Origin: Acetobacter persici JCM 25330
Lineage (GTDB): Bacteria > Pseudomonadota > Alphaproteobacteria > Acetobacterales > Acetobacteraceae
Assembly: GCF_000613905.1 (NCBI RefSeq)
Contig: NZ_BAJW01000008.1
Coordinates: 1-64,000 of the forward strand
Length of the DNA: 64,000 nt
Direction of reading: 5' to 3'
Below the pieces are notes generated by a model that had not been told where the DNA came from, made no database searches, and worked only from the letters and a program-made list of their open reading frames with translations. The position numbers were made by a program, and so were the translations under genes. This document shows positions 7,264 to 28,354 of this stretch, in pieces. Within the stretch, counting starts at the first letter, position 1. The number at the start of each line of letters is the position of its first letter.

Positions 7264-8559
7264 TTAACTTAATCTATTGTATTCATCGAAATACTCTGGA
7301 AATGTCTTGGCACAACAACTTGGATCGTTAATTTCTATATCTACTCCCCCGAGCGCCATCAACGAAAAGCACATTGCCATTCTATGATCATCGTAGGTAT
7401 CAATAACTGCAGGTTTGAAACCTGCAGTTGGTGGCGTAATTACAATGAAGTCAGATCCTTCCTTAACATCGGCACCCACTTTTCGTAACTCCTTCGCCAT
7501 TGCAGCCAATCTATCTGTTTCTTTGACCCTCCAATTCCCGATCCCTCTGATTACAGTTGTGCCTTCCGCAAAAGCTCCTAATGCTGCAACAGTCATGGCT
7601 GCGTCGGGCATATCGGTCAGATCGAGCTCCTGCGCTTTCAACTTCTCTGCTCCACGGCTCGCTTGTATCCACGTGAGCCCCTTTTCGACCGTGGCTCCCA
7701 TTGAGGCAATCACATCGGCGAATTTTATATCACTTTGATTAGACCCGGTCGGAACCAAGTTCTCAACTCTTACCGGCCCCCCACCGATGGCCCCCAAAGC
7801 GAGGAAATATGATGCAGCCGAAGCGTCCCCTTCCACTTGAAGGGGGCCAGAGGGAGCCCGATACCCGCCTGGCGGGATATTGAAATGTTTGTAGTTCTCG
7901 GTAGTGACGTTGACGCCAAAATCATTCATCGCCCGCATCGTAAGATCAACGTAAGGCCGCGAAACGAGATCGCCGATAATTTCGACATCCAATCCTTCAG
8001 GTGTGAGCGGGGCTGCAAGTAGCAGTGAGGATAAGTACTGGCTGGAAATGTCGCCTTTCACTTTGATCGATCTTTCGGAGACACTACCGGGCGATATCTT
8101 TAACGGCGGAAAGCCTGTTTCTCGTTCGTATGAAATTCTGGCACCCATTGCAGTCAAGGCATCCACGAGGTCACGAATGGGACGCTCGTACATCCTTGCA
8201 TCTCCACGAAGAACGTAACCACCCCTTCTGCATGTTAAAGATAATACCGCACACAACGGCCTCATGGCGGTACCGGCATTTCCCAAATGCAAGGTGCCCT
8301 CTGAGGCGGGCCAGACGCCTCCGCAGCCCTGAACCGAAAGCCCATCTGGACCAAGTCGGCCGCCATGCAGGCTTATACCGAGCGACTGTAGCGCTCCCTT
8401 CATGACCTCTATGTCGCGAGATTTCGGCAACCCACTTATTTCAGTTGTTCCCTCGGCAAGCGCTGCAAGCACCAGATAGCGGTTCGAATAGCTCTTCGAA
8501 CCTGGAACGCGGCAGACGCCGGCAAGCCGGCTACGTCCCTTCAGCACGATACTGCTCAT
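7264..8559 (-). CDS. aroA: 3-phosphoshikimate 1-carboxyvinyltransferase (EPSP synthase)
   Basis: Converts shikimate-3-phosphate and phosphoenolpyruvate to EPSP in the cytosol. The 431-residue length is normal. Motifs visible are VPGSKSYSNRYLVLAALAEG near the start (phosphate/PEP-binding lysine), LHLGNAGTAMRPL (the NAGTAxR signature), DISSQYLSSLLLAAPL, and ETDRLAAMAKELRKVGADV plus DDHRMAMCFSL near the end. The start at 8559 is chosen because AGGAAA lies 6-7 nt upstream and the alignment begins there; it overlaps the end of aroC by 29 nt, indicating coupling. It is the last gene of the long leftward operon and probably a second, pathway-dedicated copy beside a chromosomal aroA. Confidence 0.9.
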   Translation of the reverse strand: MSSIVLKGRSRLAGVCRVPGSKSYSNRYLVLAALAEGTTEISGLPKSRDIEVMKGALQSLGISLHGGRLGPDGLSVQGCGGVWPASEGTLHLGNAGTAMRPLCAVLSLTCRRGGYVLRGDARMYERPIRDLVDALTAMGARISYERETGFPPLKISPGSVSERSIKVKGDISSQYLSSLLLAAPLTPEGLDVEIIGDLVSRPYVDLTMRAMNDFGVNVTTENYKHFNIPPGGYRAPSGPLQVEGDASAASYFLALGAIGGGPVRVENLVPTGSNQSDIKFADVIASMGATVEKGLTWIQASRGAEKLKAQELDLTDMPDAAMTVAALGAFAEGTTVIRGIGNWRVKETDRLAAMAKELRKVGADVKEGSDFIVITPPTAGFKPAVIDTYDDHRMAMCFSLMALGGVDIEINDPSCCAKTFPEYFDEYNRLS

Positions 8560-9679
8560 TGTTCGTTTCCTGTTCGAATAGATTCTGGAACGACAGCAAC
8601 GACTCACCATGGCCCGATTGTGCACGATGGCGAAGTTTATGGTCAGCAAGCACGCATGCAATCATCGCTTCTGCGACTGGTATCGCACGAATGCCAACAC
8701 AAGGGTCATGACGACCAGTGGTAGAGACGTTCGTAGGGTCGCCAGTCTTTTTTATCGAACTTGTCGGGATAAGAATAGAACTCGTAGGTTTCACAGCAAA
8801 CCGGACGATAATATCAGATCCTGTCGATATGCCCCCTAAAATGCCGCCGGCGTGGTTCGAGCGAAAACGAACCTCCCCATTTTCAAGATATATCGCGTCT
8901 GCGTTTTCGAAGCCTGTTAACTGAGCGACCTTGAAACCGTCGCCGAATTCCACACCTTTCACGGCATTGATACTGATAATTGCTGCGGCAATATCCCCGT
9001 CTAACTTGCCGTATAATGGTGCTCCCCACCCTCCTGGTGCTCCCGTGACCCGCACTTCGCCAATTGCTCCGATAGAGGAGCCTGCGCGTCGAGTGGCATC
9101 CAACAACTCCTCCCAGCGAGGCACCAGCGCCTTGTCGGGACAGAAAAGAGAATTGGAACCGGCAGCATCCCAATCCTGCTCAGTGTGCGATACCCGAAGG
9201 TCACCTATCTGTATTAACGCCCCTTGTATTCGGATTGAATCGCCTAGAACTGTGCGAGCAATTGCACCCGCTGCAACACGAGCGGCCGTTTCTCTGGCGG
9301 AACTCCTTCCGCCACCACGGAAGTCGCGAAACCCATATTTCATATCGTATGTGATATCTGCATGTCCGGGCCTATAGGTGCTCGCAAGATTCCCGTAGTC
9401 TTTTGAACGTTGATCGGAATTTTGAACCACTAGTGCTATCGGTGTCCCAGTAGTAGAACCCTCGAAGACCCCGGATAATATTTCCACGTGGTCTAACTCT
9501 TTCCGCTGGCTCGTATATCGTGACTGGCCTGGACGTCTCTTGTTGAGCCATGGTTGGATAACTTCGGCAGACATCGCCAGTCCTGGAGGGCAACCATCAA
9601 CAATACAACCAATAGCTGGACCATGGCTCTCACCCCACGTCGTCACGCGAAACAGATGGCCAAACGTATTGTGAGACAT
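8531..9679 (-). CDS. aroC: Chorismate synthase
   Basis: A 382-residue protein catalysing EPSP to chorismate with reduced FMN. Family signatures are clear: GHLFRVTTWGESHGPAIGC at the start, RPGHADITYDMKYGFRDFRG then GGRSSARETAARVAAGAIA in the middle, and GRHDPCVGIRAIPVAEAMI near the end. The C-terminus continues to 8531 and overlaps aroA. It begins only 5 nt after the stop of aroKB. Together with aroKB, DAHP synthase and aroA it forms a compact shikimate block serving the downstream aromatic pathway. Confidence 0.93.
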   Translation of the reverse strand: MSHNTFGHLFRVTTWGESHGPAIGCIVDGCPPGLAMSAEVIQPWLNKRRPGQSRYTSQRKELDHVEILSGVFEGSTTGTPIALVVQNSDQRSKDYGNLASTYRPGHADITYDMKYGFRDFRGGGRSSARETAARVAAGAIARTVLGDSIRIQGALIQIGDLRVSHTEQDWDAAGSNSLFCPDKALVPRWEELLDATRRAGSSIGAIGEVRVTGAPGGWGAPLYGKLDGDIAAAIISINAVKGVEFGDGFKVAQLTGFENADAIYLENGEVRFRSNHAGGILGGISTGSDIIVRFAVKPTSSILIPTSSIKKTGDPTNVSTTGRHDPCVGIRAIPVAEAMIACVLADHKLRHRAQSGHGESLLSFQNLFEQETNNEQYRAEGT

Positions 9680-9684
9680 ATCGA

Positions 9685-27202: not shown

Positions 27203-27517
27203 GGCAAAGTACTCCACGTATCGTACGTTTCGCTCGTTATGGAGGCGCTGAGAAAGGGTTCGGCAGCACTATAGCATTAATGCTGACGCTGCCTCCTTCC
27301 GCGCCCATCGTTAACGAGGATGCCACATGGATGGACAAAAAAAATACTGTAATTTCTTACGGTTTTTTTGTTGAAATTTTATGTATAGGTTGGTGTCGCA
27401 ACGTAGTTGCATGAATAATAATGTGTAGCTTTTCGGCATAGGGGATGATGCCCGTACCTCGGAAAGCAGTTTCTTGGACGTTAATTGATATTTATGTGCT
27501 ACGGAGCATCATGTATC
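27203..27517. promoter_or_regulatory. Divergent promoter region between paaG and the MBL-fold gene
   Basis: A 315-nt gap between divergent genes. The middle (about 27330-27450) is AT-rich and holds no gene. It should contain the promoter of the 20-kb leftward operon and of the rightward hydrolase gene. No PaaR/PaaX-type palindrome was recognised and no regulator gene lies adjacent, so the control mechanism is unknown. Confidence 0.45.
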
Positions 27518-28354
27518 ATGTCAAATAGAAATGCATGGAAAGTCTATGAGCCTCCTCCGCCGAAGGGTGAGCCACTGTGTGTTACGACAGGAATACGGCG
27601 CATCGTGACCACGGACTGCGGTCCTATGACTTATCATGGAACTAACACGTGGCTTATTCAGACCGAGACAGGTACAATTGTAATTGATCCAGGAAGCGAT
27701 CATCCCGGACATATCAATTCAATACTTAATGCGACAGGAGGGAATATTGAGTATATTTTGATTACCCATTGGCATGCCGATCATTACGGAGGCGCACGGG
27801 AGCTTCAGGAACAGACGGGAGCTCCGGTTGCTGTTCACAAGAACAGTCTTGCAAATGAACAGTTGGAGATAATTCGGCTGGAAGACGGAGACGTCATTGG
27901 GGGCCTTCAAGCCATAGGCACTCCGGGTCATACACTAGATCATATCTGTTTTGCTACGCAAAATGGCGTTCTTTTTACCGGTGATCATATAATGGGGTGG
28001 TCGACATCCGTTGTACCTCCGGCTCCTGAGGGAAATCTTAGGCTATATATGGAGAGCCTAAAACTTGTGCTGTCACGTAAAGACGCCCTTTTGCTTCCGG
28101 CGCATGGGCCACCGCTTCATGAACCGCAGTTGGTCGTTAGAGCACTATTGTGCCGTCGTATTGAGCGTCTAGACGAAATCCGGGCGTTATTAACCAAGAG
28201 GCCTTTAACGCTCGATGCACTCGCGCTGCGTGCCTACAGACTAGCTGACAAGCATAAACACGAGGCCGTCCGCCTCACACTGTTGTCACATCTTGAGGAA
28301 TTGGCTCGACTGAACATTGCGAGGTGTGTGGAGGAAGCTTGGTATTTAAATTAG
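27518..28354 (+). CDS. Metallo-beta-lactamase-fold hydrolase
   Basis: A 278-residue MBL-fold protein of the LACTB2/glyoxalase II-like group. The metal motif THWHADHYGG (HxHxDH) lies near residue 90, GTPGHTLDHICF supplies the next histidine, FTGDHIMGW the bridging aspartate, and LLPAHGPP the last histidine. The C-terminal 70 residues form a winged-helix-like tail common in this group. It is transcribed away from the paa operon but shares the intergenic region, so it may belong to the same pathway as a thioester or lactone hydrolase or as protection. Substrate is not deducible. Confidence 0.75.
   Translation: MSNRNAWKVYEPPPPKGEPLCVTTGIRRIVTTDCGPMTYHGTNTWLIQTETGTIVIDPGSDHPGHINSILNATGGNIEYILITHWHADHYGGARELQEQTGAPVAVHKNSLANEQLEIIRLEDGDVIGGLQAIGTPGHTLDHICFATQNGVLFTGDHIMGWSTSVVPPAPEGNLRLYMESLKLVLSRKDALLLPAHGPPLHEPQLVVRALLCRRIERLDEIRALLTKRPLTLDALALRAYRLADKHKHEAVRLTLLSHLEELARLNIARCVEEAWYLN

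What the first reader, a model, noticed from the sequence alone, without database searches (positions are those of the whole stretch)
7264..28354. Candidate tropone/tropolone-type biosynthetic operon in an acetic-acid-bacterial accessory region
One leftward operon, with a divergent hydrolase, holds class II DAHP synthase, AroKB, AroC, AroA, a PDT-like protein, a phenylpyruvate-type decarboxylase, PaaK, PaaA, PaaBC, PaaD, PaaE, PaaG, a MaoC hydratase, a 4HBT thioesterase and an ACAD-fold flavoenzyme. Established: phenylacetyl-CoA epoxidase products are the source of the seven-membered ring in tropodithietic acid and bacterial tropolones, and those clusters carry PDT-like, thioesterase, ACAD and hydratase genes. 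Inference: this operon makes a troponoid from chorismate. Biosynthetic shikimate genes next to 'catabolic' paa genes argue against simple phenylacetate degradation.
Basis: partly seen in the sequence, partly recalled or inferred. Interest (0 to 1): 0.92.

Follow-up and report, generated by a model that had tools for sequence, protein, structure and literature searches.

The report
Tropolone gene cluster in acetic-acid bacteria
An acetic-acid bacterium carries, on a recently transferred stretch of DNA, what looks like a nearly complete pathway for making the seven-ringed bioactive compound tropolone, with its own copies of genes that known producers usually borrow from phenylacetate degradation.

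Summary
The ACAD protein (18954-20090) is a TdaE-type flavoenzyme: 51% identical to Phaeobacter inhibens TdaE, grouped with TdaE-like proteins apart from ordinary ACADs, with glycine where most ACADs carry the catalytic glutamate. Beside it lie a TdaD thioesterase (65%), a stand-alone PaaZ hydratase domain, PaaABCDE, PaaG, PaaK, a TPP decarboxylase and a prephenate-dehydratase-type protein. Genes specific to tropodithietic acid were not found, so tropolone or a close relative is the likely product. No other PaaA/PaaC and no complete PaaZ was found in this genome, so the paa genes look biosynthetic. The block also occurs in two other genera of the family; against one there are 3 substitutions in about 28 kb, while a 6-kb stretch elsewhere is 69-77% identical: very recent transfer. 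Corrections: the PaaBC 'fusion', split PaaK and shortened TdaD stem from one-base indels, probably sequencing errors; AroK is also broken; an IS110 region separates the aro genes, which the intact relative lacks. In the Novacetimonas maltaceti type strain tdaE is cut by IS1182-type sequence. No product has been observed. New variant of a known kind.

The parts
7264..8661 (-). AroA (EPSP synthase)
   Evidence: PF00275, 3.6e-121
8531..9679 (-). AroC (chorismate synthase)
   Evidence: PF01264, 1e-128
9685..11031 (-). AroB with the C-terminal part of AroK
   Evidence: DHQ synthase domains
11082..11483 (-). AroK N-terminal part, in another frame
   Evidence: PF01202, 3.8e-21, profile positions 1-70 of 159
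11404..12834 (-). class II DAHP synthase, a second copy in this genome
   Evidence: PF01474, 1.9e-147; two copies in G000, one in G672
12835..16108 (.). IS region with IS110 transposase at 14347-15456 (-), separating aro genes from the rest
   Evidence: NF033542 311 bits
16109..17881 (-). TPP decarboxylase, indolepyruvate/phenylpyruvate type (role of TpoG)
   Evidence: TIGR03393 413 bits, below its cut-off of 946; structures
17938..18918 (-). prephenate-dehydratase-domain protein
   Evidence: PF00800, 5e-40
18954..20090 (-). TdaE-type ACAD-fold flavoenzyme
   Evidence: 51% to P. inhibens TdaE over 347 aa; tree; diagnostic residues
20190..20606 (-). TdaD-type 4HBT thioesterase, C-terminal part out of frame in the window
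   Evidence: 65% over 100 aa; second piece; 165 aa in relatives
20658..21146 (-). stand-alone PaaZ-type enoyl-CoA hydratase (MaoC)
   Evidence: TIGR02278 positions 518-662 of 664; 6jql alignment
21293..22399 (-). PaaE
   Evidence: TIGR02160 183.5 bits, below its cut-off
22415..23044 (-). PaaD
   Evidence: TIGR02159 over its cut-off
22951..24048 (-). PaaC and PaaB, one frame in the window, two genes in relatives
   Evidence: TIGR02158 and TIGR02157 over cut-offs
23984..25024 (-). PaaA, with DEAGH and EESFH stretches kept
   Evidence: PF05138 280.6 bits; 4iit 438.6 bits
25076..26403 (-). PaaK in two frames (25076-26050 and 25915-26403)
   Evidence: TIGR02155 in both pieces; intact
26420..27217 (-). 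PaaG-type isomerase
   Evidence: TIGR02280 best hit, 152 bits, below its cut-off
27485..28354 (+). divergent MBL-fold hydrolase, role unknown
   Evidence: PF00753; closest structure 4ad9, LACTB2
30772..35910 (-). NodT/EmrA/EmrB-type efflux genes in the same transferred block; export or self-protection is only a guess
   Evidence: block identity

Best explanation
A mobile biosynthetic gene cluster for tropolone or a close simple troponoid. Proposed route: an extra DAHP synthase, AroB, AroK, AroA and AroC raise chorismate supply (the remaining shikimate steps and chorismate mutase presumably come from the host); the PDT protein gives phenylpyruvate; the TPP decarboxylase gives phenylacetaldehyde; a host aldehyde dehydrogenase gives phenylacetate; PaaK gives phenylacetyl-CoA; PaaABCE, with PaaD, epoxidises the ring; PaaG gives oxepin-CoA; the PaaZ-type hydratase opens it. 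Without an aldehyde-dehydrogenase half the product closes to the seven-membered CoA ester; TdaE, with TdaD, dehydrogenates and oxygenates it and frees CoA; spontaneous decarboxylation gives tropolone. Shown here: the genes, their families, and what was not found beside them. Inferred: every reaction in this organism, and the product.
For: TdaE 51% over 347 aa and TdaD 65% over 100 aa to the P. inhibens pair. Tree of 19 rows: 13 TdaE-like rows, this one included, apart from ordinary ACADs with 100/100 support. Catalytic-Glu column: G in 12 of 13 TdaE-like rows (the 13th is truncated), E in 4 of 5 ordinary ACADs, A in the fifth. 50 of 79 TDA-clade diagnostic residues kept. Stand-alone PaaZ hydratase with D38, H43, G61 at the spacing of TrlA D33, H38, G56. 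No other PaaA/PaaC match, no PaaZ over cut-off and one other, weak, ACAD match, 23.9 bits in the genome. All 12 genes from paaG to the decarboxylase gene are open in G672. Published TdaE and TpoE/TpoD chemistry leads to tropolone.
Against: No product or transcript data. Frame breaks in four places of the window copy; tdaE cut in N. maltaceti. The stand-alone hydratase TrlA was inactive in vitro, and P. inhibens TdaD did not act on the tested substrates. Decarboxylase, PDT, PaaE, PaaG and PaaK score below equivalog cut-offs, and the decarboxylase is closer to broad 2-keto-acid and indolepyruvate decarboxylases than to phenylpyruvate decarboxylase 2nxw. The PDT protein has T-T-F where the solved enzymes have T-R-F. 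Window TdaE joins the TDA-type clade with 94/94, just under the program's star. The aro genes are missing in G672.
Confidence: 0.76

Rival explanations
1. The cluster makes a different or more decorated troponoid (tropone, a hydroxytropolone, a sulfur troponoid) with help from genes elsewhere.
For: A GST (60106-60705) 40 kb away is weakly like TdaB, 28% over 134 aa; unlinked tailoring genes cannot be excluded; the MBL hydrolase has no assigned role.
Against: TdaC, the TdaF-like flavoprotein, the gamma-glutamylcyclotransferase and the haloperoxidase of TDA clusters gave no match in the 70.6-kb contig or in 80 kb of G672; no flavin hydroxylase among the profiled genes at 7264-36000.
Confidence: 0.2
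2. An ordinary phenylacetate degradation operon.
For: paaK, paaABCDE and paaG are catabolic genes elsewhere; 131 of 397 genomes of the family have a PaaA/PaaC-family match.
Against: No PaaZ over cut-off; hydratase without dehydrogenase half; TdaE and TdaD in the middle of the gene run; shikimate-type genes beside it.
Confidence: 0.03
3. The copy in this genome is decaying and makes nothing.
For: Frame breaks in aroK, paaK, paaB/paaC and tdaD; IS elements inside; IS1182-type sequence in tdaE of N. maltaceti.
Against: 8 one-base indels against 3 substitutions over about 28 kb, also outside the cluster, fit sequencing error better than decay; an EPSP-synthase-family gene elsewhere in the assembly is split too; G672 is intact.
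Confidence: 0.2
4. The contig does not belong to this genome (contamination), so transfer into a third genus is unproved.
For: 3 substitutions in about 28 kb to a genome of another genus, while a 6-kb stretch from another contig matches that genome at only 69-77%; contamination estimate 1.34%.
Against: The flanks differ from G672 (91-93% left, 90-98% right) and same-genus G617 matches them at 88-98%, 94% over 9.1 kb. Either way the carriers are of one family.
Confidence: 0.08

Closest known systems
tda cluster for tropodithietic acid, Phaeobacter inhibens (pPGA1_262)
   Same: tdaD-tdaE pair, 65% and 51% identical; a PaaZ-type hydratase without working dehydrogenase (PaaZ2 there, stand-alone here).
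   Different: Here no TdaC, TdaF-like protein or other TDA genes near the cluster, and only a generic GST 40 kb away; own paa, PDT, decarboxylase and aro genes.
Burkholderia plantarii tropolone cluster (TdaE-Bp; PMC8283759)
   Same: TdaE, thioesterase and shikimate-pathway genes in one cluster, tropolone as product.
   Different: Its paa catabolic genes lie elsewhere in the genome (figure legend). B. plantarii sequences could not be fetched; B. arboris L058 was used instead (39% TdaE).
tpo cluster for 3,7-dihydroxytropolone, Pseudomonas (PMC11481866)
   Same: TpoE and TpoD (TdaE/TdaD type), TpoF (PaaK type) and TpoG (TPP decarboxylase); Pseudomonas sp. ACM7 has six further PAA genes in its cluster, a partial precedent.
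   Different: The authors state that TpoF and TpoG homologues are not encoded in clusters of other genera; here both types occur in acetic-acid bacteria, with PaaABCDE, a stand-alone hydratase and aro genes. No hydroxylase found.
trl cluster for 3,7-dihydroxytropolone, Streptomyces (PMC11110157)
   Same: Stand-alone PaaZ-type hydratase (TrlA) and precursor-supply genes.
   Different: trl uses PaaY-like TrlF and classical flavin monooxygenases TrlE, TrlCD; here TdaD and an ACAD-fold TdaE.

Membership tests
TdaE-type tropone/tropolone biosynthetic cluster | TdaE/TpoE-type ACAD-fold flavoenzyme | tested here: met
TdaE-type tropone/tropolone biosynthetic cluster | TdaD/TpoD-type thioesterase | tested here: met
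   62 plasmid records hold TdaD relatives, all Phaeobacter, Tritonibacter or Burkholderia
TdaE-type tropone/tropolone biosynthetic cluster | source of the seven-membered CoA ester (PaaABCE, PaaG, hydratase without dehydrogenase) | tested here: met
   by homology only:
TdaE-type tropone/tropolone biosynthetic cluster | a troponoid is made | not testable with these tools
   needs LC-MS
TDA (tropodithietic acid) cluster | TdaB, TdaC and TdaF present | tested here: not met
   TdaC and a TdaF-like protein: no match; TdaB: only a 28% GST match 40 kb away
trl hydroxytropolone cluster | TrlE and TrlCD flavin monooxygenases, PaaY-like TrlF | tested here: not met
   none among the profiled genes at 7264-36000; Trl proteins themselves were not used as queries
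catabolic PAA operon | bifunctional PaaZ | tested here: not met
   no hit over cut-off in G000; genome 91.45% complete
catabolic PAA operon | PaaF, PaaH, PaaJ | not tested
   none among the profiled genes of the cluster; the rest of the genome was not searched for them

The most novel reading that the evidence does not exclude
A purely anabolic, nearly self-contained tropolone pathway: nearly all dedicated steps from the shikimate entry enzyme to the TdaE product in one transferable locus, in a host where no other phenylacetyl-CoA epoxidase was found, passed recently among at least three genera of acetic-acid bacteria, where tropolone would act against competitors or as an iron scavenger.
Probability: 0.55. 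Interest if true: 0.75.

Novelty: new variant of a known kind. Interest (0 to 1): 0.63.

Why it matters
Bacterial tropone pathways described in the papers seen here draw their ring from the host's phenylacetate catabolon, with at most part of those genes in the cluster. Here a divergent paaABCDE-paaG-hydratase set, plus precursor genes, travels with tdaE and tdaD into a host where no other phenylacetyl-CoA epoxidase was found. That would be a degradation pathway turned wholly into a biosynthetic one. It would add acetic-acid bacteria, which make vinegar, to the candidate producers of a bioactive metal chelator, and it offers a compact gene set for studying the pathway.

Tried and rejected
TdaC as identity of the PDT protein: no significant match. 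A solved TdaE by sequence: 89 distinct chains matched, the 60 shown bear ordinary ACAD-family names. A name for the window's organism: not found; window 40000-64000 against plasmids gave four Komagataeibacter plasmids at 95-96%, over one 2.8-kb stretch. The TonB receptor at 39626-41890 as part of the system: closest to hydroxamate receptors such as FhuA, so left out. Promoter scan of the divergent region: 1 site against 0.9 expected. No structure was predicted and no fold search run. The genome-contig scan gave 9 loci from 41 pattern matches: seven TDA-type Alphaproteobacteria, N. maltaceti, and an Anaerolineales protein that groups with ordinary ACADs. Rows dropped: one Pseudovibrio locus (L015) and the G313 copy (L010/L025; contig length 218,458, equal to the P. 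porticola record) were not put in the tree; truncated P. denitrificans was not used to define the diagnostic residues. Literature: tropolone with Acetobacteraceae, 1 paper; tropolone with Acetobacter, 7; troponoid with biosynthetic gene cluster and acetic acid bacteria, 0; tropone with Komagataeibacter, 0; tropodithietic with Acetobacteraceae, 1. By titles and abstract starts none reports such a producer. One search (any two of five terms) found 1,431 papers; the 20 listed hold no tropolone, and the rest were not seen. The library is open-access only, and the supplement of PMC11481866, which lists 319 clusters, was not read, so acetic-acid bacteria may already be in it.
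Full report
What is there. From left to right on the map: AroA, AroC, AroB with a frame-broken AroK, class II DAHP synthase, an IS110 region, TPP decarboxylase, PDT protein, TdaE, TdaD, PaaZ-type hydratase, PaaE, PaaD, PaaC/PaaB, PaaA, PaaK, PaaG, then the divergent MBL gene. From paaG to the decarboxylase gene the gaps are short or the frames overlap, so one operon is likely there (inference from spacing). 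The aro genes lie beyond the IS region and may be a separate unit.

The key enzyme. The ACAD protein is 51% identical over 347 residues to P. inhibens TdaE, WP_014881725.1, one of the two proteins assayed in JACS 2021. Against five ordinary ACADs of another genome of the family it is 23-27% identical. In a tree of 19 rows (18 different) 13 TdaE-like rows, this one among them, stand apart from the five ordinary ACADs and an Anaerolineales protein with 100/100 support. The window's protein (with its identical G672 copy) joins the eight TDA-type rows with 94/94, just under the program's star; with B. arboris added the group has 100/99. In the column of the usual catalytic glutamate (its role is recalled, and some ACADs place it elsewhere) 12 of 13 TdaE-like rows have G, the truncated P. 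denitrificans row has a gap, four of five ordinary ACADs have E and one has A. Of 79 columns invariant in seven TDA-type TdaEs and not so occupied in the five ACADs, the window has 50, B. arboris 37, S. rimosus 28, Rhodococcus 20, Anaerolineales 6; the ACADs have 0 by construction. TdaE-specific residues named in the JACS supplement were not available.

Partners. TdaD is 65% identical over 100 residues, with a second piece in another frame. In the plasmid collection TdaD relatives (E <= 1e-15) occur in 62 of 72,556 records: 58 Phaeobacter, 3 Tritonibacter, 1 Burkholderia; P. inhibens TdaE relatives (E <= 1e-45) in 65: the same genus counts plus 2 Streptomyces and 1 Rhodococcus. I did not match accessions one by one. 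The hydratase aligns to the hydratase half of PaaZ (6jql); D38, H43 and G61 keep the spacing of TrlA's D33, H38 and G56. In the 14 loci around TdaE-like genes compared with the window's proteins (8-31 kb each), TdaD-type hits occur in 11, MaoC hits in 4, an AroK hit in one and a PaaG hit in one (Anaerolineales), and no hit to PaaA, PaaB/C, PaaD, PaaE or PaaK at E <= 1e-5. So the linked paa set is unusual among them.

Host background. No PaaA/PaaC-family match lies outside the window in G000. No PaaZ reaches the cut-off in any of 10 genomes searched; the 11 hits in G000 other than the window's hydratase match only the aldehyde-dehydrogenase part, which also shows that the host has candidates for the phenylacetaldehyde step. 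One other ACAD-family match exists, 23.9 bits against a cut-off of 22.4. The assembly is 91.45% complete, so absence is not proof. In the family, 131 of 397 genomes have a PaaA/PaaC-family match; of the 14 same-genus rows printed, three do: G000, and G605 and G608 with scores like catabolic sets; other same-genus rows may be among the 246 not listed.

Distribution and transfer. The TdaE protein was found in 1 of 200 genomes of the family at E <= 1e-50 and 2 of 395 of the order at E <= 1e-60: G000 and G672, a genome of another genus, identical over 378 residues. With P. inhibens TdaE as query, 2 of 398 genomes of the phylum sample matched: G000 and G313. A third carrier in the family is Novacetimonas maltaceti LMG 1529 (L019). 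G189, which the tool labels as a third genus, is that strain: its contig 65 is 12,435 bases long like the N. maltaceti contig and identical to L019 over 9,890 bases; the genome paper gives 163 contigs (part 1 of 2 of the text read). Window 16,000-43,882 differs from G672 by 3 substitutions and 8 one-base indels, and N. maltaceti from G672 by about one base in 10-12 kb, while a 6-kb stretch of G000 around an EPSP-synthase-family gene matches G672 at 69-77% in four pieces. So the block moved very recently. A relaxase-like frame (42768-45272; DUF3363 over its cut-off, RlxS below its cut-off) lies across its right edge.

Frame breaks. paaK, paaB, paaC and tdaD are whole in both G672 and N. maltaceti. 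More one-base indels than substitutions, indels outside the cluster too, and a split EPSP-synthase-family gene elsewhere in G000 point to sequencing error; this is inference. In N. maltaceti the similarity of tdaE ends about 205 bases into the gene, and the rest of the contig end matches sequence annotated as IS1182-family transposase on several acetic-acid-bacterial plasmids.

The aro block. Searched in the whole of G672 it has only distant matches, 68% for part of aroC; G672 has one class II DAHP synthase against two in G000. The window's DAHP synthase is 40-42% identical to the single copies of four relatives (G000's own second copy was not aligned), so it is not a recent duplicate of that lineage's gene. 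G+C is 0.509 for aro, 0.491 for tda/paa and 0.592 for the stretch from C190; but the first 7 kb of the window are 0.488, so one origin for both is suggested, not shown.

Product. TdaC, a TdaF-like flavoprotein and four other tda-locus genes gave no match; TdaB only a 28% GST match 40 kb away. Tropolone is the simplest product, since the TdaE product decarboxylates to it spontaneously. P. inhibens TdaE frees CoA itself, while Pseudomonas TpoE needs TpoD; which holds here is open. Papers seen: PMC8283759 abstract, section 4 part 1 and sections 9 and 11; PMC11110157 abstract and section 5 part 1; PMC11481866 passages and sections 8 and 10; PMC7497051 and PMC13163973 passages; PMC5908927 part 1.

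Verdict. Observation mostly right, interpretation supported, product unproved. A new variant of a known kind: a TdaE-type cluster that carries its own paa genes, with a partial precedent in Pseudomonas sp. ACM7.

Noticed in passing
window 3455-6003 (+): AAA ATPase and HNH-like gene pair matching PADLOC candidate defence proteins PDC-M01A (805 bits) and PDC-M01B (343 bits), related to PtuA.
   Followed up: no
window 39626-41890 (-): TonB siderophore receptor, closest to FhuA-type models, inside the transferred block; a link with an iron-chelating product is possible but untested.
   Followed up: partly
window 38542-39240 (-), 37574-38281 (-), 36050-37114 (+): LuxR-type, GntR-type and LysR-type regulators inside the transferred block; any of them might control the cluster.
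   Followed up: no
L019 10206-10325: Contig end of N. maltaceti LMG 1529 carries IS1182-type sequence inside tdaE.
   Followed up: partly
L053 (G617:C44) 1150-20000 and G672:C3 about 2554734-2573581: A second stretch of 18.9 kb, 99.5% identical between the window's genus and G672's, near the same locus: a place of repeated exchange between genera.
   Followed up: no
window 45758-46699 (+): AbiEii-type nucleotidyltransferase, in a 2.8-kb stretch 95-96% identical to Komagataeibacter plasmids.
   Followed up: no
L059, L060: TdaE-like proteins on Streptomyces rimosus and Rhodococcus plasmids sit with a ketoacyl-ACP synthase III and an aminotransferase and without TdaD; they also have G in the catalytic-Glu column. 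Their pathway is unknown.
   Followed up: no
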